Shown: one piece after another, positions 3,814 to 28,126 of the stretch
Numbering within the stretch: the first letter of the stretch is position 1
How the letters are laid out: every line of letters begins with the position of its first letter
Source of the DNA: an uncultured Solirubrobacteraceae bacterium
GTDB lineage: Bacteria > Actinomycetota > Thermoleophilia > Solirubrobacterales > Solirubrobacteraceae
Assembly: GCA_902806175.1 (NCBI GenBank)
Contig: CADCVQ010000039.1
Coordinates: 1 to 32,145, forward strand
Length of the DNA stretch: 32,145 nt
Reading direction: 5' to 3'
The notes under the pieces: model-generated
Told to the model about the DNA's origin: nothing
What the model saw: the letters and a program-made list of their open reading frames with translations, nothing else
Databases searched by the model: none
Program-made: the position numbers and the translations under genes

Positions 3814-4572
3814 GTGGCAGTCCGGTGGATGGGCGTAGGCGACGTGCCTTGGGCGGCGGAGATGATGGAAGCGCGGCGGCAGGTTTACGCTTCTTACTCG
3901 CCGGTCTTCTGGCGTCCCGCAAATGACGTCGTTGAACTGCACGGCCGCTTCCTAGAGCGGCAACTGCAAGACCCAGCGAACGTGGGGCTTCGAACGGACC
4001 ACGCCTTCTTGATGGGCCAGCTCCGAGGCGAAGAGGGGGTCGTCGACGACTTCGCTGTTGACCAGCAGCCGAGGTGGGCCAACGAGGGGCGAGAGCTGGT
4101 GGGTGGAGCGTGGCAGGCCCTACGGGCATTAGGAGCGACGCGGCTGCGGGTCGTCACGGCTAAGGCCGACTTCGACAAAGTCTCGATGCTTCTCGCCGCG
4201 TCACTTCAGCTCGCCGAGGAGTGGTGGGTGAAGGAGGTGCGGCCCAGCGGCGGGGCGAACTCGCCACGATCGGTGAAGGGGACGCGCTTTTCAGGCGTCG
4301 TGGGACCCGCCCCGCCGGTCTACGACCCTGGCGGCCCTGTGCTTCTGGCGCGTCTCGAACCCGATGCAGACCTCGCTGTCCTCGAAGCCGAGGCCGCAGA
4401 CCTAGGCGCCGTTTTGGCAGTCGTGGCGGTCGCCCCGTCGAGCGAGTACGTGCAACGCCTTCAGCACCGCAGCTGGACAGTCGCTTCCCAGTGGTATGTG
4501 GGTCGGCCCGGCACCGGCCCTGGTGATGATGAGATGTCGCGCGACAGTCAGGCTCCGAACGCGTCTCTGTAG
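3814..4572 (+). CDS. GNAT family acetyltransferase-like protein
   Basis: 252-residue protein. The N-terminal half reads as a GNAT-type fold: an initial RWMGVGDVPWAAEMMEARRQVYA helix, a strand pair FLMGQLRGEEGVVDDFAVD (about residues 66-84), then the helix ELVGGAWQALRALGATRLRVVTAKAD, which resembles the acetyl-CoA-binding segment. The canonical QxxGxG/A pyrophosphate loop is not clearly seen, so the donor is inferred. The C-terminal 110 residues (PPVYDPGGPVLLARLEPDADLAVLEAEAADLGAVLAVVAV) look like a second, weaker GNAT-like or regulatory domain. The GTG start is chosen for the adjacent -10-like box. The gene lies alone between two inverted 33-bp repeats, suggesting it moves or spreads as a unit. 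A related N-acetyltransferase-like fold of other function is possible. Confidence 0.6.
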   Translation: MAVRWMGVGDVPWAAEMMEARRQVYASYSPVFWRPANDVVELHGRFLERQLQDPANVGLRTDHAFLMGQLRGEEGVVDDFAVDQQPRWANEGRELVGGAWQALRALGATRLRVVTAKADFDKVSMLLAASLQLAEEWWVKEVRPSGGANSPRSVKGTRFSGVVGPAPPVYDPGGPVLLARLEPDADLAVLEAEAADLGAVLAVVAVAPSSEYVQRLQHRSWTVASQWYVGRPGTGPGDDEMSRDSQAPNASL

Positions 4573-9603: not shown

Positions 9604-9740
9604 AGGCAGAAAGCAGCAGCCGCTTCCGGGCGAAAGATGGCATGAGCCGGGCTTCTGTCCTGGCGCGTGTGTAGGGACCTCCTCAGCTCGGGCGCGCGTG
9701 GCGTGCCGGTAATCAACCGTGGAGCTTGAGGAGGCCCCAG
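9604..9740 (+). ncRNA. structured 5' leader of the IS110 element, candidate bridge RNA region
   Basis: The 137 bases before the transposase can fold into successive hairpins. GCCGGG/CCTGGC (9646-9664) forms one. A long stem of about 15 pairs with two bulges joins 9674-9689 to 9722-9737. Inside its loop a small GGCGCG/CGTGCC hairpin is followed by an unpaired GGTAATCAACCGTG. IS110-group elements are known to encode a bridge RNA in the non-coding left end; position and internal loops fit, but no guide match has been tested. The 3' arm contains the transposase GAGGAGG ribosome site, so the fold could also repress translation. Confidence 0.4.
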
Positions 9741-10757
9741 GTGACGATCGTAATGGGACTTGATCAGCATCGAGCGCAGATCACCGCCGATTGGCTAGAC
9801 AGCGACAGCGGCGAGATCGGCCGCGCGCGGGTGAGGCCCGCGCACCGCGAAGGCGTGCGCGAGTTCTTGGGCCGGTTCGCGGGCCGCGAACTTCAGGTTG
9901 CTCTGGAAGCGACGACCGGCTGGCGCTTTGTCGTTGAGGAGCTGCAGGCGATCGGCGCCGAGGTGCACTTGGCCGAGCCGGCCGAGACGAGCTTCATGCG
10001 CGGCAACAAGCGGCGCGCCAAGACCGATCGTGCGGACGCGCGCCACCTGCGCGAGCTGTTGATGGTCGGGCGGCTGCCGGAGTCGTGGATCGCGCCGGCG
10101 CACCTGCTCGATCTGCGTGCCCGGGTGCGGCTGCGTCACACGCTCGTCGATCAGCGCGGCGAGTGGCAGCAACGCATCCAGGCGGTGCTCTATCACCACG
10201 GCGTGCCTCAGCGCCGCGATCTGCTGCGCGCCGACAAGCGCCGCTGGCTGGAGCAGCTCGAGTTGCCCGCGGCGGCGCGTGAGCAGATCACGATCGCGCT
10301 AACGATGATCGACGCGCTCGACGCGCAGTCAGGACCGCTGACCGCCGAGCTGCGCTCCTATGCGCGCCGCCAGCCGGGCTGCCGGGCGCTGATGGGCCAC
10401 TACGGCATCGGCGCGCTGACTGCCGTCACGATCCTTGCCGAGCTCGGCGACACGCGGCGCTTCTCCTCCTCACGCCACGCCGTGCGCTACGCCGGCCTGG
10501 ACATCACCGTCCACCAATCAGACCAGCGCCGCGCGCCCGGGCACCTCTCCCGCCAAGGGCCGCCCGCGTTGCGCTGGGCGCTCTACGAGGCCGCCCAGGT
10601 CGCCCGCCACCCCCGCAGCCCCGACCGCGCCTACTACGAGCAGGCCGCCGCACGGCTCGGCGGCAACCGGGCGTGTCTGGCGATCGCGCGCAAGCTGCTC
10701 AAGCGCAGCTACCACACGCTGCGCGAACTCGGCGACGAGGCGCTGCAGCCCGCCTGA
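9741..10757 (+). CDS. IS110 family transposase (DEDD/RuvC-like)
   Basis: 338-residue recombinase. The N-terminal RuvC-like domain shows the DEDD set: D8 in MGLDQH, E56 in ALEATTGW, D96 and D99 in KTDRADARHL. A helical middle follows. The C-terminal Transposase_20 domain contains GHYGIGALTAVTILAELGDTRRF, SRHAVRYAGLDI and a HQSDQRR segment that probably holds the catalytic serine. It ends with LGDEALQPA. It acts with an element-encoded RNA in characterised relatives. The GTG start is chosen for GAGGAGG six bases upstream; a TTG five codons earlier is inside that site. Length is slightly short for the family but all motifs are present, so it may be active. Confidence 0.93.
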   Translation: MTIVMGLDQHRAQITADWLDSDSGEIGRARVRPAHREGVREFLGRFAGRELQVALEATTGWRFVVEELQAIGAEVHLAEPAETSFMRGNKRRAKTDRADARHLRELLMVGRLPESWIAPAHLLDLRARVRLRHTLVDQRGEWQQRIQAVLYHHGVPQRRDLLRADKRRWLEQLELPAAAREQITIALTMIDALDAQSGPLTAELRSYARRQPGCRALMGHYGIGALTAVTILAELGDTRRFSSSRHAVRYAGLDITVHQSDQRRAPGHLSRQGPPALRWALYEAAQVARHPRSPDRAYYEQAAARLGGNRACLAIARKLLKRSYHTLRELGDEALQPA

Positions 10758-11256
10758 ACCTCCAAGCTCGCGGTGCGCGCACAGTCCTCACTCACCCCGA
10801 TGCACCGCGGCCAGCTCCCGACATGCTGCCGCCGCCACCGTCATGTGGACGGCCCAGAAAGACCGAGCGGCCGCAACGCTTCAACCTGCGGGAACACCCC
10901 ATCGACCATCACGTCACCGACCGGCCGCGTGGGCCGATCGCGGACCGAGATAAGCCCGGGCGCCCGCGCGCACCACCCCCACACCCCCGACCGCGCTCAC
11001 GCACCGCCCCACCGACTCGACGTTCACCCGACAACAACGACGCGCTCGCTCTTGACACGGGCCCCGACACAGATAAGCAGCAGCGCCACGCCCCAGCGAG
11101 GGCTATCCCTGTCCTGCGAACGTGGATAGGGAAGAGGTCCCAGGTTCCAATCCTGGGTCGCCCACTCGACCTCCGCAGGGTTTCGTCCCGACGTTGCCGC
11201 CACGGCACGAGCCATGCTGCGAGCGCAGACGCGTCGCGGCCGAGTCGCGATGCCGT
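10758..11256. other. C-rich non-coding 3' region of the IS110 element
   Basis: About 370 bases after the transposase are strongly C-rich on this strand and open in several frames without ribosome sites. They probably belong to the element's right end. The stretch also holds an imperfect hairpin (CTATCC with GGATAG near 11103-11128) and the tRNA-like fragment. Nothing else is seen up to the decarboxylase stop codon. Confidence 0.45.
11131..11164 (+). tRNA. tRNA 3'-end fragment (T arm and acceptor strand only)
   Basis: A perfect T arm, CCAGG-TTCCAAT-CCTGG (11140-11156), is followed by a seven-base acceptor strand GTCGCCC and discriminator A. No anticodon arm, D arm or 5' acceptor strand is present upstream, where the IS110 end lies. 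This is a remnant: either an attachment-site duplication or a tRNA gene cut by insertion. Confidence 0.5.
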
Positions 11257-16130: not shown

Positions 16131-16515
16131 AGGAAACCGTCGGCGGCATCGGCAGAACGCAGAAAGCCCGCCGTAGCGGGTCTCCTAGAATGGGCGCGGC
16201 GGGTTTCGAACCTGCGACCTCTCGCGTGTGAAGCGCTCGGACTTGGCCAAAGGACTGGCGCATTTGCAGGAAGAAACCAGAAAACGGTTTCGTTGGGCCT
16301 GCACGATCCTGCCTGTACCTGCACGATTTGCACCCCCGTTTCGGCCATCGGGTGGCCTAAACGCGCGGCGCCGATACGGGTTTGGGCCATCGGAGGGCCC
16401 GAAACCCCGGCCGGCCGCGCCGCCGCCCCGCGCGCACCGCCCTCGCGTAGGTCTCGCGGGGCGCTCCGCCGAGGTCGGCGGGGGTCGGAGCGGCGCCTGC
16501 GGCGACAGCCGGAAG
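16131..16515. other. 385-base gap holding the attachment-site region
   Basis: Holds the tRNA-Val 3' half (16191-16237) and then about 270 bases up to the excisionase-like gene. The latter include repeated TGCACGAT and CCTGTACCTGCACGATTTGC tracts near 16300-16330 and GGGCCATCGG repeats near 16345 and 16388. These short direct repeats could be arm-type integrase or excisionase sites; that is inference. Confidence 0.4.
16191..16237 (-). tRNA. tRNA-Val(CAC) 3' half, probable attachment site
   Basis: Reading the minus strand: an anticodon arm with loop TTCACAC (anticodon CAC), a variable region AGGTC, a T arm GCAGG-TTCGAAA-CCCGC with one A-C mismatch, then acceptor strand CGCGCCC and discriminator A. 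The 5' half (acceptor, D arm) is absent. A tRNA cut at the anticodon beside an integrase gene is the usual signature of a tyrosine-recombinase attachment site. Orientation predicts the element extends to the right, with the complete tRNA at its far end beyond this window or lost. Confidence 0.65.
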
Positions 16516-16866
16516 ATGACCGTCGCGCACTCACCCGAGCAGCTCGTCGAGTTGCTCAGCCAAGCCGCCCGCACTCCAGGCGACGAGGTCGGCCTGCTCA
16601 CCAGCGCGCAGGTCGCGCGGGTCGTCGGGCGCCACCGCAACTGGGTGCTGCGAAACGCCATCCGCCTGGGCGGGTTTCGGCTGCCTGGGTCTGATGAGTG
16701 GCGCTTCTCGCCGCGCGGTGTGGCCGAGGGCATCCTGGGCTCTCAGGAAGGTGCGGCGCGGCCGATGCAGCCCGCCGCCACGGGCCGCCGGTCGGCCTCG
16801 CGGCTGCTGTCCTACCCGCCGCCCGAACAGCTGTTCGGCGACCGTCCGCGGAGAGTAGCGCGCTGA
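16516..16866 (+). CDS. excisionase-like helix-turn-helix protein
   Basis: 116-residue basic protein. Residues about 20-65 (LLTSAQVARVVGRHRNWVLRNAIRLGGFRLPGSDEWRFSPRGV) form a MerR/AlpA-type winged helix: two recognition helices followed by a strand ending in the typical WRF. Such small proteins next to integrases are recombination directionality factors (Xis). The C-terminal 40 residues are disordered and arginine-rich. Its stop codon shares one base with the integrase ATG (TGATG), so the pair is translationally coupled. The ATG has no spaced ribosome site (GGAAG is immediately adjacent), so the true start is uncertain. The role is inferred from fold and position. Confidence 0.68.
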   Translation: MTVAHSPEQLVELLSQAARTPGDEVGLLTSAQVARVVGRHRNWVLRNAIRLGGFRLPGSDEWRFSPRGVAEGILGSQEGAARPMQPAATGRRSASRLLSYPPPEQLFGDRPRRVAR

Positions 16867-18272
16867 TGGCCCGCCCGGCGCGCGGCAGCGTGGAGATCGT
16901 CAAGCGCAAGGACGGCCTGCGCACCTTCTGGGTGCGCCTGACCGTCGACGGGCGCCGCCACCGCGTCAGGCTGGGCACCGACCGCGATGGCTGGACACCG
17001 GCCCGGGCGCAGGTCGAGCTCGAAGAGCAGGTCAAGGCGGTTGGGGCGGGAACGTGGGCGCACCCCGACGATCGGCTGGACGCCCGCCAGGACAGCGACC
17101 CCACCTTCCGCGCGTTCGCTTCCAGCTGGCTTGAGGACAACATGCTCGAGTGGCGCCTGAGCACGGTCAAGGACGTGCGATGGCGGCTGAAGAGCCACCT
17201 GCTTCCGCACATCGGCGAGGACCGCCTGTCGACGTTCGACATCCCGCGCGTCACCGCGGTCAAGACGGCGCTGCTGAAGGAGAGCCGTCGCATCGCCGAG
17301 GGCATCGACGCGGGCGATATCGAGCGCGACGCGCACAACAATCCGTTGCGGCCGCTGTCCAACGAGTCGATCAACAAGTGCCTGGCGCTGCTGTCGCGCA
17401 TCCTCGACGACGCCGTCGAACGCGGCTATCTGCACGACAACCCCGCCCGCAGGGTGCGCCGCCTGCGCCACCACCGCCCACGCCGCCCCGTGCTCGAGTC
17501 CCATGAGGTCTGCGCGATGCTCGACGCCGCAGACCGCCTCGACCTCCGACGCGCAGGCGTCACCGAACCGGTGGCGCAGGTCGCGGCACTGCGCGCCGAA
17601 GGACAGACCTACCAGCAGATCGCCGACCGCCTTCAGATCAGCCTGTCCACCGCGCACCGTCGCCAGACTCGCTACGACCAGGCCGGTGAGCCGATCGCCT
17701 ACTTCCGCATCTGGGTGCGAACGCTGTGCACTATCGGGCTGCGGATCGACGAGGCGTGCCGCGCGCGCCGCAGCGACGTCGATCTCATCGCCGGGTGCCT
17801 CCGCGTCGGACACGCCAAGACCGCCGCCGGCGTGCGCAACGTCCAGCTGACTCCCGACACCGCGATCGACCTTGAGCGCTACCTGACGATGACCGCAGAG
17901 CGCCCCGCCGACTGGCCGCTGTTGCCGACGCGCCGCGCCACGTTTCACAACCGCAACAACGTTGCCAAGCGCGTCGTCGCCCCTCTCGTGGCCGAGACGA
18001 ACCTTGTCCTCGCTGAGCGCGGCCAACCCGGGCTGCGCGAAGGAGTCACCGCGCACGCCCTGCGCAAGACGTACTTCACGTTCCTGCACGGAGCGGGCGC
18101 GCCGCCGCGATGGGTCGCAGACCAGGGAGGCCACAGTGACCCGTCGACATCGCTTCGCATCTACACCGAGTCGCTGCGCCACCGCGAGCGCGGACACCAC
18201 GGAAAGGCGTTCGACGCCTTGCTCAACCCAACGCCAGCAAGCGACAACAGCACGCCGGGTCCCGACGGGTAA
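16866..18272 (+). CDS. tyrosine recombinase / phage-type integrase with an internal HTH insertion
   Basis: 468-residue site-specific recombinase. Residues 6-60 are an arm-binding-like strand region (GSVEIVKRKDGLRTFWVRLTVDGRR). A core-binding SAM-like domain (about 78-195) includes FASSWLEDNMLEWRLSTVKD. The catalytic domain has R293 (GLRIDEAC), K318 (GHAKTAAG), H397 and R400 (AHALRKTYF), H423 (GGHSDPSTS) and Y433 (RIYTE), so the full set is present. Unusual: between the helix LESHEVCAMLDAADRLD and the helix carrying R293 there are about 50 extra residues (231-280) reading VAALRAEGQTYQQIADRLQISLSTAHRRQ, a helix-turn-helix of resolvase or sigma type. The gene is coupled to the Xis-like gene and lies beside a tRNA-Val half. 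Probably functional. Confidence 0.92.
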   Translation: MARPARGSVEIVKRKDGLRTFWVRLTVDGRRHRVRLGTDRDGWTPARAQVELEEQVKAVGAGTWAHPDDRLDARQDSDPTFRAFASSWLEDNMLEWRLSTVKDVRWRLKSHLLPHIGEDRLSTFDIPRVTAVKTALLKESRRIAEGIDAGDIERDAHNNPLRPLSNESINKCLALLSRILDDAVERGYLHDNPARRVRRLRHHRPRRPVLESHEVCAMLDAADRLDLRRAGVTEPVAQVAALRAEGQTYQQIADRLQISLSTAHRRQTRYDQAGEPIAYFRIWVRTLCTIGLRIDEACRARRSDVDLIAGCLRVGHAKTAAGVRNVQLTPDTAIDLERYLTMTAERPADWPLLPTRRATFHNRNNVAKRVVAPLVAETNLVLAERGQPGLREGVTAHALRKTYFTFLHGAGAPPRWVADQGGHSDPSTSLRIYTESLRHRERGHHGKAFDALLNPTPASDNSTPGPDG

Positions 18273-18784: not shown

Positions 18785-19435
18785 TTAGGGCGTAATGAAT
18801 CCGCTTTGGTAGGCGCGGATGACCGCTTGTGTGCGGTCGCGCGCTTCGAGCTTGGTGAGCAGATGCGCGACGTGGGTCTTGACCGTTTCGAGACTGACGG
18901 TGAGCTGGGAGGCGATCTCGGCGTTGGAGTGTCCGTGGGCGATCAGGCGTAGCACCTCGGTCTCGCGGTCGGTGAGGCCTGCCGCGTCGAGGCGGCAGGC
19001 GGACGGCTCGGCGGGTGAGTGGCGCGCGGCAAGTTCGCGGATCGCGACGGGGAACAGCAGTGAGTCGCCGGCGGCGAGCAGCCGGATGGCGCGGATGACC
19101 TCGTCGGGGCGGGCGCGCTTGAGCAGGAACCCGGAGGCTCCCGCGCGCAGGGCGTCAAAGACGTAGTCGTCGTTCTCGAAGGTCGTGAGGACGAGGATGC
19201 GTGGTGGGTCGTCGAGGTTGGCGAGTAGGCGTCGCGTGGCTTCGATGCCGTCGACGACCGGCATGCGGACGTCCATCAGCACGACGTCGGGGCGCAGTCG
19301 GCGTACGAGCGCCGTGACGCCGGCGCCGTCCTCGGCCTCGCCGATGACGCTGAGGTCTGCTTCGGCGTTGATGATCGCGCGCAGGCCGCTGCGGATCAGC
19401 GGTTCGTCGTCGACGAGCACGACGCCGAGGCTCAT
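18785..19435 (-). CDS. NarL/FixJ-family response regulator
   Basis: 216-residue DNA-binding regulator. The receiver domain (1-120) has acidic residues DD9-10, phospho-acceptor D55 (VVLMDVRMP), the TT switch and K105-region FLLKRA. The C-terminal LuxR HTH (about 150-210) reads LTDRETEVLRLIAHGHSNAEIASQLTVSLETVKTHVAHLLTKL. It is co-transcribed with the preceding histidine kinase, overlapping it by four bases (ATGA). The likely signal is relayed from that kinase. The nearest targets are its own operon and the divergent membrane-protein operon, separated by a gap with phased CTCGCA repeats. Confidence 0.93.
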   Translation of the reverse strand: MSLGVVLVDDEPLIRSGLRAIINAEADLSVIGEAEDGAGVTALVRRLRPDVVLMDVRMPVVDGIEATRRLLANLDDPPRILVLTTFENDDYVFDALRAGASGFLLKRARPDEVIRAIRLLAAGDSLLFPVAIRELAARHSPAEPSACRLDAAGLTDRETEVLRLIAHGHSNAEIASQLTVSLETVKTHVAHLLTKLEARDRTQAVIRAYQSGFITP

Positions 19436-20679
19436 GGCGTGGGGTGCAGCGGCAGTTGCACGGAGACGCGCCAGCGACCGCCGTCGGGGCCGGCGGACAT
19501 CTGGCCGCGCAGGCTCGTGACGCGCTCTTGTATGCCGTTCAGGCCGCGGCCGCCGCCCGCGCGCCGGGGCTGCGCTGCGGCGAGGGGATTTGTCAGCTCG
19601 AGCTCGAGGTTGTCCGCGCCGACGTTGAGGCTCAGGCTGACCGGTGCGCGGCCTGCATGACGCGCGGCGTTGGTGAGGCTCTCTTGGACGATGCGGTAGG
19701 CCTCGCGGGACACCGCCTGTGGCACATCGTCGATGCGGCCGGTCAGCTCGGTGGTGACATCGAGCCCGGCGGACCGGGAGCTTTCGACGAGTCGCTGCAG
19801 GTCAGCCAGGGTGGGTGTTGGAGCGCGCGTGGCAGCACGGTCCTCGCGCAGCAGGCTGAGGACGTGATCGAGGTCGCGCAGGCCGTTGCGCGCAGATGTT
19901 TGGATGTTCGTCAGCGCTTCACGCACGAAGACCGGATCGTCGGACAGGACGTGCTCGGCGGCGCCGGCCTGCACGTTGACGATGCTCAGCGCGTGACCGA
20001 CGGAGTCGTGCAGCTCGCGGGCGAGGCGGTTGCGCTCGGCCAGGCGCAGCGCTTGGCGGTGCATAACGGCGAGCTGCTCGGCCGGTGACGGGCCGAGCAG
20101 GCGCGGCGCGAGGCGCGCGAGGATCGCGCACGCGGTCGCGGCGAGGTAGATGAGCGCGAACGGTGACAGCAGGGCGAGCGGTACAAGCCACGCGCTCGCC
20201 GCGCCTCCGGGCACTGTCGCATCCAGCTGACCGAGCGGCACCTCTCCGGAGGCAAACGGCGCCAGGCAGGCGGAAACGGCCGCCGGCGGCAGGACGAGCG
20301 TCAGGGCACCGACCACGCCGCCCGCAAGGAGATGCGCCACGAACCACCCCGCGGAACGCCAGCGCGTCGACCATGAGATCTGCACGTCGAGCGCAGCAGC
20401 GTCAACGAGCGAGACGCCGAGCAACCGGCGTACCGCGGCGATCTCGAGATCGCGCACGGACGCCAGCATCCCCGTGGCCATGGCGAGCGGCCCGAAGCAC
20501 AAGACGCCTGCCACCGTCCATGCCGCGGGCTCTCCCAGGCCGCCCTCCAGCACGGGCGCGAGGAACCCTGCGAGTGTCCCGAACGGTGCGATCAGCGCAG
20601 TGCCGATCCCCAGATACACGAAGCGCTGCCACGTCGACCTACGCACGGGGATGGTCAGCATTTCACGCGCTCGCGCCAT
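19432..20679 (-). CDS. NarL-type sensor histidine kinase
   Basis: 415-residue membrane kinase of the HisKA_3 class. The N-terminal part has about four to five membrane segments (near 22-47, 54-74, 112-142, 163-190) with a bulky loop between, and no separate extracellular domain, so it probably senses a membrane-associated signal. The dimerisation/phosphoacceptor helix RNRLARELHDSVGHALSIVNVQA holds H224. The HATPase domain shows the N box RIVQESLTNAARHA and a glycine box GGGRGLNGIQERV. First gene of the operon with the regulator at 18785. No ribosome site is obvious at the ATG. Ligand unknown. Confidence 0.92.
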   Translation of the reverse strand: MARAREMLTIPVRRSTWQRFVYLGIGTALIAPFGTLAGFLAPVLEGGLGEPAAWTVAGVLCFGPLAMATGMLASVRDLEIAAVRRLLGVSLVDAAALDVQISWSTRWRSAGWFVAHLLAGGVVGALTLVLPPAAVSACLAPFASGEVPLGQLDATVPGGAASAWLVPLALLSPFALIYLAATACAILARLAPRLLGPSPAEQLAVMHRQALRLAERNRLARELHDSVGHALSIVNVQAGAAEHVLSDDPVFVREALTNIQTSARNGLRDLDHVLSLLREDRAATRAPTPTLADLQRLVESSRSAGLDVTTELTGRIDDVPQAVSREAYRIVQESLTNAARHAGRAPVSLSLNVGADNLELELTNPLAAAQPRRAGGGRGLNGIQERVTSLRGQMSAGPDGGRWRVSVQLPLHPTP

Positions 20680-20787: not shown

Positions 20788-21321
20788 ATGACTTCGACAC
20801 CGCACCAGCAGGCAATGACGGCCGCCCACGTGGGGTGCGCGGCCGCGACAGGCTACGGCGCCATCAAGGCCGCTTGGGGGCTTGGCAGCACGGTCGGCGT
20901 GCGCGACAGCGCGGTGCTTGAGGACTTCATGGCGCAGATCGGAGGACCGCTGCTCGCGGTGTGGGCCACGGTCGTGCTTGCCCTGCTCGCAGGCGCGATC
21001 CTGCAGTCCCTCGTGCAGCCGTGGGGCCGCCGAATCCCGCGGCGCCTACGCGCGTCGCTGGCATGGCTTGGCTTCGCGATCATGACACCGATCGGACTGC
21101 TCAGCCTCGCGGGGACCGTCGCCAAGGCCGTCGCCGGCCAACCCGAGCCGATGCTCTCCCCCGCGATCTACGTCTACGTCTACAGCTGCTTCGTCGTGCT
21201 CGGCCTCAGCTTCGCGGTCACGGCATGGCGAACCCGCCCAGCAGCGCGGGCCTCGTCACCGCGACCGCGCCGCTCCGCACGTCCTGCCCCATTTGTCGCC
21301 CATCCTCAGGAGGACCGATGA
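20788..21321 (+). CDS. integral membrane protein of unknown function
   Basis: 177-residue protein with about three to four membrane segments (near 45-68, 90-115, 128-150) and a short hydrophobic N-terminal stretch AAHVGCAAATGYGAIKAAWGLG. The C-terminal 30 residues are a basic, proline-rich cytoplasmic tail. No family recognised. Start taken as ATG with GAGAG nine bases upstream; a GTG three codons earlier is possible. Its end overlaps the next gene by four bases (ATGA). The pair is divergent from the kinase/regulator operon and probably its target, a usual layout for two-component systems that control a membrane module. Confidence 0.68.
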   Translation: MTSTPHQQAMTAAHVGCAAATGYGAIKAAWGLGSTVGVRDSAVLEDFMAQIGGPLLAVWATVVLALLAGAILQSLVQPWGRRIPRRLRASLAWLGFAIMTPIGLLSLAGTVAKAVAGQPEPMLSPAIYVYVYSCFVVLGLSFAVTAWRTRPAARASSPRPRRSARPAPFVAHPQEDR

Positions 21322-21803
21322 CCCCCGCCGCACATACCGCACCGACCAACGCCGCACGCAGTGCCGACATGACCGACCGGACCGCACGAGTCGCACCGAC
21401 GTCGATCACGATCACCGCGGGCAAGCTCGCCGCCGCGATCCTCCTGCTGGCCTGCGGATTTCACGCCTTCTGGGCCGCCGGCGGAGAATGGGGAGCCGCG
21501 ACCGCCTACGGCTCGCCCCAACTCCCACCCCAGGCCGCGACCGCGGTCATCGCAGTCCTGATCGGCTGCGCAGCCCTGCTGCTGCTGGCGCGCATCGGCG
21601 TCCTGGCCATGCCACTGCCACGCTGGATGCTGCGCGTGGGCACCTGGGTCCTCGTCGCCGTGTTCGCGCTCGCCGGCGTAACCAACCTCATCCAGACCCC
21701 CGACGCCTACGCCCGCGACTGGCACATCTACTTCTTCGGGCCGCTCCTGCTGACCCTGGCGGCGCTGTGCGCGATCGCCGAGCGCTCCATCCCGGGCCGC
21801 TAG
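21318..21803 (+). CDS. DUF3995-like membrane protein
   Basis: 161-residue protein with four membrane segments (about 33-52, 70-92, 101-125, 133-152). Features typical of DUF3995 are the GFHAFWAAGGEWG motif after the first segment and the short loop TPDAYARDWHIYFFGPLLL before the last. The family is uncharacterised. The first 30 residues are polar and may contain a later true start (MTDRTARV), but the ATG at 21318 has a good GGAGGA site. Coupled to the preceding membrane gene by an ATGA overlap; the two may form one complex in the membrane. Confidence 0.75.
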   Translation: MTPAAHTAPTNAARSADMTDRTARVAPTSITITAGKLAAAILLLACGFHAFWAAGGEWGAATAYGSPQLPPQAATAVIAVLIGCAALLLLARIGVLAMPLPRWMLRVGTWVLVAVFALAGVTNLIQTPDAYARDWHIYFFGPLLLTLAALCAIAERSIPGR

Positions 21804-26291: not shown

Positions 26292-27473
26292 ATGCGCACG
26301 CTTGCGTCGGCGCGCTCCCAGGCCCTGGTTTTGCTGAATGTCCTGCTCGTGGCGTTCCTGTTGGGCACGTCGCAATACGAGGTTTGGGTGGGCCCGATCT
26401 TTCAGGAGAGTCAGGGGCCGCGGGTGGCGAATGCGCTGCTGTTGAGTGCTGCATGCCTGCCATTGCTGTGGCGACGTTCGCGTCCGTTGCTCTCGTTCGG
26501 GATTGTTGTGGTGGCCGTCCTCGCACAGGCCAAGCTCGAGGCGTACGCCGGAGCCGACCAGCGCGACGATCAGGGGACGCTGCAGTTGTGGTTTGCCACG
26601 CTGATCGCCTTCTATTCGCTGGCGACGCATGCCCACCGGCGTCACGCGATGGTCGCGGCCTCGATCGCGGGGGTCGTGTGGCTGGCCAATGACGTGCGCG
26701 AGCTGCTCGTCGGCGATACGGACATCGACCACACGATGCCTGCGTGGTTCATCATCGGCGGTGCCTGGGGTCTTGGATACGCGCTGCGCGGCCGCCGCCA
26801 GCAGGTGGAGGAGCTGGCCGATCGCAGCGCGCGTCTTGAGCGCGAGCGAGAGGAACAGTCACGCGCCGCCGTCGCGGCCGAACGCGCGCAGATCGCGCGC
26901 GAGCTGCACGACGTTGTCGCGCACAGCCTCAGCGTGATGGTCGTGCAGGCGCAGGCCGCGGACCGCGTGCTTGAGGGCGAGCAGCCGTCAGCGCGCGAGG
27001 CACTGCGCTCCGTGCATGCGACCGGCCGCCAAGCGCTGGTCGAGATGCGTCGCCTGGTCGGGCTGCTGCGCGAGAACCCCGAGCTTGAGCTCGCGCCCCA
27101 GCCAGGGCTGGGCCGCCTCGACGAGCTCGTCGAGCAGATGCGCGAGGCCGGCCTGCCGGTCGAGCTGAAGATCGAGGGAGATCAGCGCGCACTGACACCC
27201 GGCGTGGATCTGTCGGCCTACCGGATCGTGCAGGAGGCGCTCACCAACGTCCTCAAGCACGCCGGTGGCGCTCGTGCATGTGTTGCCGTGCGCTTCGGAG
27301 TCGATGAGGTCGAGCTCGAAGTAGTCGACGATGGTAACGGACCGCACAACGGCGCCGACGGTGGACACGGCCTGGTCGGGATGAGCGAGCGCGTCGCCCT
27401 TTATGGAGGCATCCTCGACTACGGAGGCCACGACGGCCACGGCTTTCGCGTGCGGGCGCGGCTACCGACGTGA
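26292..27473 (+). CDS. NarL-type sensor histidine kinase
   Basis: 393-residue HisKA_3-class kinase. The N-terminal half has about four to five membrane segments (near 10-26, 46-60, 66-80, 98-112, 120-135, 150-165) and no sizeable external domain. A short coiled coil (QQVEELADRSARLEREREEQ) leads to the phosphoacceptor helix AQIARELHDVVAHSLSVMVVQA with H206. The HATPase domain has N box YRIVQEALTNVLKHAGG and glycine boxes VDDGNGP and GGHGLVGMSERV. Its stop overlaps the regulator start (GTGA). The start is the ATG just after a -10-like box. Signal unknown; similar in type to the kinase at 19432 but clearly a different paralogue. Confidence 0.92.
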   Translation: MRTLASARSQALVLLNVLLVAFLLGTSQYEVWVGPIFQESQGPRVANALLLSAACLPLLWRRSRPLLSFGIVVVAVLAQAKLEAYAGADQRDDQGTLQLWFATLIAFYSLATHAHRRHAMVAASIAGVVWLANDVRELLVGDTDIDHTMPAWFIIGGAWGLGYALRGRRQQVEELADRSARLEREREEQSRAAVAAERAQIARELHDVVAHSLSVMVVQAQAADRVLEGEQPSAREALRSVHATGRQALVEMRRLVGLLRENPELELAPQPGLGRLDELVEQMREAGLPVELKIEGDQRALTPGVDLSAYRIVQEALTNVLKHAGGARACVAVRFGVDEVELEVVDDGNGPHNGADGGHGLVGMSERVALYGGILDYGGHDGHGFRVRARLPT

Positions 27474-28126
27474 GCATCCGCGTTCTCATCGCCGATGACC
27501 AAGCCCTCGTACGAGTCGGCTTTCGCAAGATCCTCGAGTCCGAACCCGATCTCGAGGTCGTCGGTGAGGCAGCAGACGGTGGCGAGGCCATCGAGCGCGC
27601 CCGCCTGCTGCGCCCGGACATCGTGCTGATGGACATCCAGATGCCACGCATTGACGGTCTACAGGCGACCCGCCGACTCGCCGGCGGTGGCATCGCGCGT
27701 GTCCTGATCCTCACCACCTTCGACATCAACGAGTACGTCTACGAAGCATTGCGCGCTGGCGCCAGCGGTTTCCTGCTGAAGGACACCGAGGCCGATCAGC
27801 TCATCACTGCCATCCGCGTCGTCGCACAGGGCGACGCGCTCCTGGCACCCTCGATCACGCGCCGGCTAATCGAGCAGTTCGCCAGACGCCCGCCGCCGAG
27901 TAGCCGCCCTGACGCGCTGACGGAGCTGACCGCGCGCGAGCTTGAGATCCTTCAACTGCTCGCACGTGGGCTCTCAAACGCCGAGATCGCACACGAGCTG
28001 ACCCTCGGGGAGGCCACCGTCAAGACGCACGTGGCGCGCGTCCTGCACAAACTCGGGCTGCGCGACCGCGTACAGGCCGTCGTGGCCGCCTACGAAACCG
28101 GGCTCGTCCAGCCCGGCGGCCGATAA
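27470..28126 (+). CDS. NarL/FixJ-family response regulator
   Basis: 218-residue regulator paired with the kinase at 26292, sharing four bases with it. The receiver has ADD (8-10), D55 (IVLMDIQMP), LTTFD and FLLKDTE around the conserved Lys. The LuxR-type HTH reads LTARELEILQLLARGLSNAEIAHELTLGEATVKTHVARVLHKL. It probably controls nearby genes such as the divergent AOC-like secreted protein gene or the cupin gene downstream; neither is proven. Confidence 0.93.
   Translation: MSIRVLIADDQALVRVGFRKILESEPDLEVVGEAADGGEAIERARLLRPDIVLMDIQMPRIDGLQATRRLAGGGIARVLILTTFDINEYVYEALRAGASGFLLKDTEADQLITAIRVVAQGDALLAPSITRRLIEQFARRPPPSSRPDALTELTARELEILQLLARGLSNAEIAHELTLGEATVKTHVARVLHKLGLRDRVQAVVAAYETGLVQPGGR

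What the first reader, a model, noticed from the sequence alone, without database searches (positions are those of the whole stretch)
16866..18272. Tyrosine integrase with a helix-turn-helix inserted in its catalytic domain
All six catalytic positions are present (R293, K318, H397, R400, H423, Y433). Yet about 50 residues (231-280) sit between the first catalytic-domain helix and the helix carrying R293. They read ALRAEGQTYQQIADRLQISLSTAHRRQ, a convincing helix-turn-helix like those of resolvases or sigma region 4. In known tyrosine recombinases this position is a short linker. An extra DNA-binding module here could give target choice or self-regulation.
Basis: partly seen in the sequence, partly recalled or inferred. 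Interest (0 to 1): 0.72.

Follow-up and report, generated by a model that had tools for sequence, protein, structure and literature searches.

The report
Integrase with built-in helix-turn-helix domain
This bacterium carries a DNA-inserting enzyme whose cutting domain holds a complete extra DNA-binding module; many relatives in the same bacterial order share it, it was found nowhere else here, and it is probably an added control on how the mobile DNA moves.

Summary
Confirmed. ORF 16866-18272 encodes a 468-aa tyrosine integrase with an N-terminal arm-binding domain, a core-binding domain and a catalytic domain; all six catalytic residues are conserved in a 60-row alignment. A tri-helical helix-turn-helix (residues 234-273; Pfam HTH_23, E 6e-8; AlphaFold pLDDT about 90-95) sits between the first catalytic-domain helix and the helix leading to R293. 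It is not a one-off: 34 distinct integrases from 27 Solirubrobacterales genomes carry it at the same place (81-94 residues from Glu211 to the first catalytic Arg, against 29-48 in 29 relatives without it). It is not standard for tyrosine recombinases: 58 viral integrases have 28-59 residues there, and no spanning match turned up in class and phylum samples, phages or plasmids. The element sits in the 3' end of tRNA-Val(CAC). Its att arms carry GTTTNGGMCAWCG sites, often palindromic, at conserved spacings (-98, +147) in this and two sister elements. Best reading: an extra DNA-binding module working on attP arms or the int promoter. Target choice looks less likely, because integrases with conserved recognition helices lie beside different tRNAs. 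Which protein binds the sites is untested.

The parts
16866..18272 (+). Tyrosine integrase, 468 aa, with an HTH inserted in its catalytic domain
16866..17060 (+). N-terminal arm-binding-type domain (residues 1-65, three strands plus one helix)
   Evidence: AlphaFold2 secondary structure, confident in both models
17100..17480 (+). Core-binding domain (residues 79-205; Phage_int_M / SAM-like)
17550..17705 (+). Inserted segment, residues 229-280
   Evidence: absent from 29 relatives and 58 viral integrases
17565..17684 (+). Helix-turn-helix proper, residues 234-273 (helices 234-244, 249-256, 260-273)
   Evidence: HTH_23 E 6.1e-8; AF2 pLDDT about 90-95
17706..18185 (+). Rest of the catalytic domain, residues 281-440, with R293, K318, H397, R400, H423, Y433
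16516..16866 (+). Small upstream gene, 116 aa, stop overlaps the int start (TGATG); possible excisionase-like winged HTH
   Evidence: homologue upstream of int in L003; HTH_17 only weakly, E 0.017-0.07
16190..16235 (-). att core: 46 bp identical to the 3' end of tRNA-Val(CAC) (intact gene on G000:C153, about 4096-4167)
16263..16269 (+). TTTGCAG at +72 from the core; also +72 in L003, and at -21 in the element's inferred other arm on C153
16298..16327 (+). Two CCTGCACGAT direct repeats, 20 bp apart, in the att arm
16338..16362 (+). Palindromic arm-like site at +147 (GTTTCGGCCATCGGGTGGCCTAAAC)
   Evidence: same spacing in L003
16380..16405 (+). Second palindromic arm-like site at +189 (GTTTGGGCCATCGGAGGGCCCGAAAC)

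Best explanation
A tRNA-targeting tyrosine integrase with the usual three domains (arm-binding, core-binding, catalytic) that has gained a fourth domain: an HTH in the loop between the first catalytic helix and the helix before the first catalytic arginine. Shown: the predicted fold, the place, the spread across Solirubrobacterales, purifying selection and the tRNA-Val att core. Inferred: the HTH binds the element's own att-arm DNA, most likely the GTTTNGGMCAWCG sites at -98, +147 and +189. It would thus help build or stabilise the recombination complex and set its direction. Because the +147/+189 sites lie just upstream of the xis-like and int genes, it may also repress int expression.
For: HTH fold and place. 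Lineage-wide presence with a bimodal spacing, strongly clustered on a tree built without the insert: 3 changes against 21 for shuffled labels. dN/dS in the insert about 0.50, below 1; recognition helix about as conserved as the core-binding domain in most clades. Arm-like sites at the same spacings in this and two sister elements. The perfect or near-perfect palindrome occurs only in the two sister genomes among 10 searched, one site each, both in the att region; 2 of 3 genome-wide matches of the half-site lie in this att region. Integrases with similar recognition helices lie next to different tRNAs, which argues against reading of attB.
Against: No experiment or structure with DNA links the HTH to these sites; the arm-binding domain or the upstream xis-like protein could bind them. 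The insert evolves faster than the catalytic core (dN/dS 0.50 against 0.20). The sites were compared only within the query's small clade.
Confidence: 0.4

Rival explanations
1. The palindromic sites belong to the upstream xis-like protein (116 aa) or another regulator; the HTH insert binds something else or only stabilises the recombination complex.
For: The upstream protein is encoded with int (TGATG overlap) and weakly resembles HTH_17 excisionase-type domains. Winged-HTH directionality factors act with tyrosine recombinases in excision (PMC11963761, abstract seen).
Against: The HTH_17 match is weak (E 0.017-0.07) and below the cut-off; no excisionase family matched.
Confidence: 0.28
2. The HTH helps choose the chromosomal target by contacting attB or its flanks beside the tRNA.
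For: Different insert clades have different HTH sequences and sit next to different tRNAs.
Against: Within the 13-member clade the recognition helix is similar (K/R-x-TV-x-(Y/F/W)H) although tRNAs near its members include Phe, Ile and Thr. Integrases without the insert are also found beside tRNA-Val(CAC).
Confidence: 0.1
3. The HTH no longer binds DNA: it is a structural insert or a protein-protein contact that the catalytic fold tolerates at a permissive loop.
For: The loop tolerates other insertions (59-residue span in L195 and L197). The insert is among the fastest evolving parts of the protein.
Against: HTH signatures and the recognition helix are kept across divergent members; dN/dS stays below 1.
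Confidence: 0.14
4. Artefact: chance HTH match or assembly or translation error.
For: None found.
Against: 34 distinct sequences with the insert, confident fold, open frame under purifying selection.
Confidence: 0.01

Closest known systems
Tn1549/Tn916-type integrases (arm-binding-domain tyrosine recombinases)
   Same: Best structural match (6EN2, Z 22.5, rmsd 3.0, 290 residues aligned); same catalytic set; arm-binding, core-binding, catalytic order (PMC8138268).
   Different: The subgroup has a beta-strand insertion between strands 2 and 3 of the catalytic domain (PMC8138268); the query family lacks it and has an HTH between the first two catalytic helices instead.
Lambda integrase
   Same: Three-domain layout and catalytic fold (Z about 19-20); arm sites beside the core (general knowledge).
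   Different: No HTH in the catalytic domain; other extra strands (PMC8138268).
Integron integrases (IntI)
   Same: A subgroup-specific insertion inside the catalytic domain that is essential for integron function (PMC8138268); similar fold.
   Different: From general knowledge that insert is a short helix at another place and not an HTH.
Solirubrobacterales integrases without the insert (L026, L027, L091-L110)
   Same: Same family; some lie beside the same tRNA-Val(CAC).
   Different: 29-48 residues in place of 81-94; no convincing HTH in the ten scanned.

Membership tests
Tyrosine recombinase / Phage_integrase (PF00589) | Catalytic residues R-K-H-R-H-Y | tested here: met
   R293, K318, H397, R400, H423, Y433
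Tyrosine recombinase / Phage_integrase (PF00589) | Catalytic-domain profile and fold | tested here: met
   PF00589 E 2.9e-13; Z 17-22 to known recombinases
Tyrosine recombinase / Phage_integrase (PF00589) | Recombination activity | not testable with these tools
   needs bench work
Arm-binding-domain integrases | N-terminal arm-binding domain, three strands and one helix | tested here: met
   Predicted E7-13, E19-27, E30-38, H45-61
Arm-binding-domain integrases | Arm-type sites flanking the att core | tested here: inconclusive
   Conserved repeats on both arms at fixed spacing; binding cannot be tested here
IntTn916 subgroup | Beta-strand insertion between strands 2 and 3 of the catalytic domain | tested here: not met
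   Profile alignment to Tn1549 Int shows that the family lacks those residues
tRNA-integrating elements | Core duplicated from a tRNA 3' end | tested here: met
   46-bp identity with tRNA-Val(CAC)

The most novel reading that the evidence does not exclude
A distinct subgroup of tyrosine integrases, found here only in Solirubrobacterales, that recognises attP with two accessory DNA-binding domains, one N-terminal and one built into the catalytic domain, so that arm binding is coupled directly to the first catalytic arginine and can gate catalysis or direction.
Probability: 0.3. Interest if true: 0.72.

Novelty: new variant of a known kind. Interest (0 to 1): 0.56.

Why it matters
The insertions in the catalytic domain of tyrosine recombinases that a large survey lists (PMC8138268) are strands, helices or short segments, and some of them change how DNA is handled. 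A whole HTH just before the first catalytic arginine would be a new way to couple accessory DNA binding to catalysis, and it comes with 34 natural variants and a ready comparison set without it. It also marks a loop that accepts a folded domain, which could interest integrase engineers.

Tried and rejected
AlphaFold2 with only two sequences gave pLDDT 42 and was set aside. Searches for relatives in viral contigs, phages and plasmids found no insert-bearing integrase. NCBIfam and PHROGs gave only generic integrase names. Six paper searches of open-access texts gave titles and abstracts with no report of an HTH inside a tyrosine recombinase catalytic domain; only one paper was opened (PMC8138268, by term search), and subscription papers were not searched. 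A single origin of the insert was tested: AU p = 0.02 against one clade, so two gains or a gain with losses are possible, but long branches make this weak. Contig C26 of G071, where both att arms flank the core, shows no end overlap, so tandem elements are the likelier reason. A second copy of the tRNA-Thr core was not found in G084-G086.

Full report
What was checked. The window (G000:C39, a 4.1-Mb draft genome in 183 contigs; the two named relatives found are Solirubrobacteraceae MAGs) holds an intact ORF at 16866-18272. Pfam finds Phage_integrase (282-437), Phage_int_M (81-133) and, between them, HTH_23 at 237-275 above its cut-off. The catalytic-domain match starts only at profile position 26, which is what an insert after the first catalytic helix would give.

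Structure. With two sequences the prediction failed except for the N-terminal domain. With 58 viral integrases added (alignment A5) the model has mean pLDDT 89.9 and pTM 0.77. Helix 212-229 is the first catalytic helix, helices 234-244, 249-256 and 260-273 form the HTH, and helix 279-289 precedes R293. Closest solved folds are Tn1549 Int (Z 22.5) and, with high Z too, XerA and lambda Int; 290 residues align to Tn1549 Int over model residues 78-452, so about 85 residues of that span, the length of the insert and more, have no partner.

How widespread. A search of 232 genomes of the order gave two kinds of match: full-length ones, and ones broken at about residue 227 and taken up again at about 284. 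Measured on 63 distinct sequences, the span from Glu211 to the first catalytic Arg is 29-48 residues in 29 and 81-94 in 34, with nothing between. The 34 come from 27 genomes (my count) in three families of the order. HTH-type Pfam families match at least 11 of 21 insert members and only one of 10 members without insert, weakly (E 0.02). In samples of 249 genomes of the class and 396 of the phylum, spanning matches occurred only in this order. Those searches scored only 4-6 candidates per genome at strict thresholds, so distant cases could be missed. Other phyla were sampled only through viral, phage and plasmid collections and one peptide-pattern scan of bacterial and archaeal genomes, which found only the two MAGs.

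Evolution. On a tree made without the insert columns the label needs 3 changes (shuffled mean 21). One clade is mildly rejected (AU p 0.02). Between the query and its 73%-identical relative in L003, dN/dS is about 0.50 in the insert, 0.36 in the arm-binding and core-binding domains and 0.20 in the catalytic rest (ratios taken from dN and dS). Within most clades the recognition helix is about as conserved as the core-binding domain.

The element and its att site. Directly upstream of int lies a 116-aa gene whose stop overlaps the int start, with a homologue in L003. Upstream of it, 16190-16235 equals the 3' end of tRNA-Val(CAC); the intact gene is on contig C153. The left flank of the window copy looks like the terminator found after tRNA-Val in many relatives, whereas the left flank of the C153 copy resembles the end of sister elements. 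So the element probably starts at 16190 and runs right, beyond the contig end at 32145, to C153; this is inferred, as the contigs are not joined. The same core lies beside sister integrases or their remnants in G071, G069 and G060, and repeated copies in G060 and G073 suggest stacked elements. Insert-bearing integrases elsewhere lie near tRNA-Thr, Phe, Gly, Ala, Ile and His genes. In G133 a 30-bp tRNA-Phe end recurs about 100 kb from the intact gene beside int, consistent with a large island.

Arm sites. Comparing this element with G071 and G069 gives GTTTNGGMCAWCG sites (one mismatch in the query's copy on C153) at -98, -98 and -97 on one arm and at +147 on the other (query and G071), plus +189 in the query. 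The +147 site of G071 and the -97 site of G069 are palindromes, each the only one of its kind in its genome and absent from eight others searched. In the query genome three exact GTTTNGGCCATCG matches occur, two of them here. Among about 30 other core-containing loci of the family none has an exact site; three have one-mismatch matches at other spacings (L028, L138, L146). TTTGCAG near the core is less specific: it also occurs at -17 to -19 in four other tRNA-Val loci.

Interpretation. The HTH and its place are firmly supported. Its function is inferred. A palindrome suggests a dimer, and two kinds of site on the arms would suit two accessory DNA-binding domains in one protein, but the upstream xis-like protein is a real candidate for one of them. 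Target choice is disfavoured by similar recognition helices in integrases beside different tRNAs.

Noticed in passing
window 11131-11166: Degenerate 3' fragment of tRNA-Ile(GAT) (intact copy near G000:C171:25326), perhaps the scar of another element.
   Followed up: partly
window 21027-21787 and L037:1-748 (G000:C153): About 760 bp with membrane-protein genes repeated at 85% identity near the inferred other end of the element.
   Followed up: no
window 18785-20679 and 26292-28126: Two related two-component systems (HisKA_3 kinase plus response regulator) inside the presumed element; the regulator genes are 66% identical and inverted.
   Followed up: no
L003 / L039 (G071:C26), core at L003 5357: Core flanked by both att arms, as in attP or a tandem junction; the contig ends do not overlap, so it is not shown to be circular.
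   Followed up: partly
window 9726-10757: IS110-family transposase (Transposase_20, DEDD_Tnp_IS110).
   Followed up: no
L195, L197: Viral integrases with a 59-residue span at the same loop, showing that the site takes other insertions.
   Followed up: no
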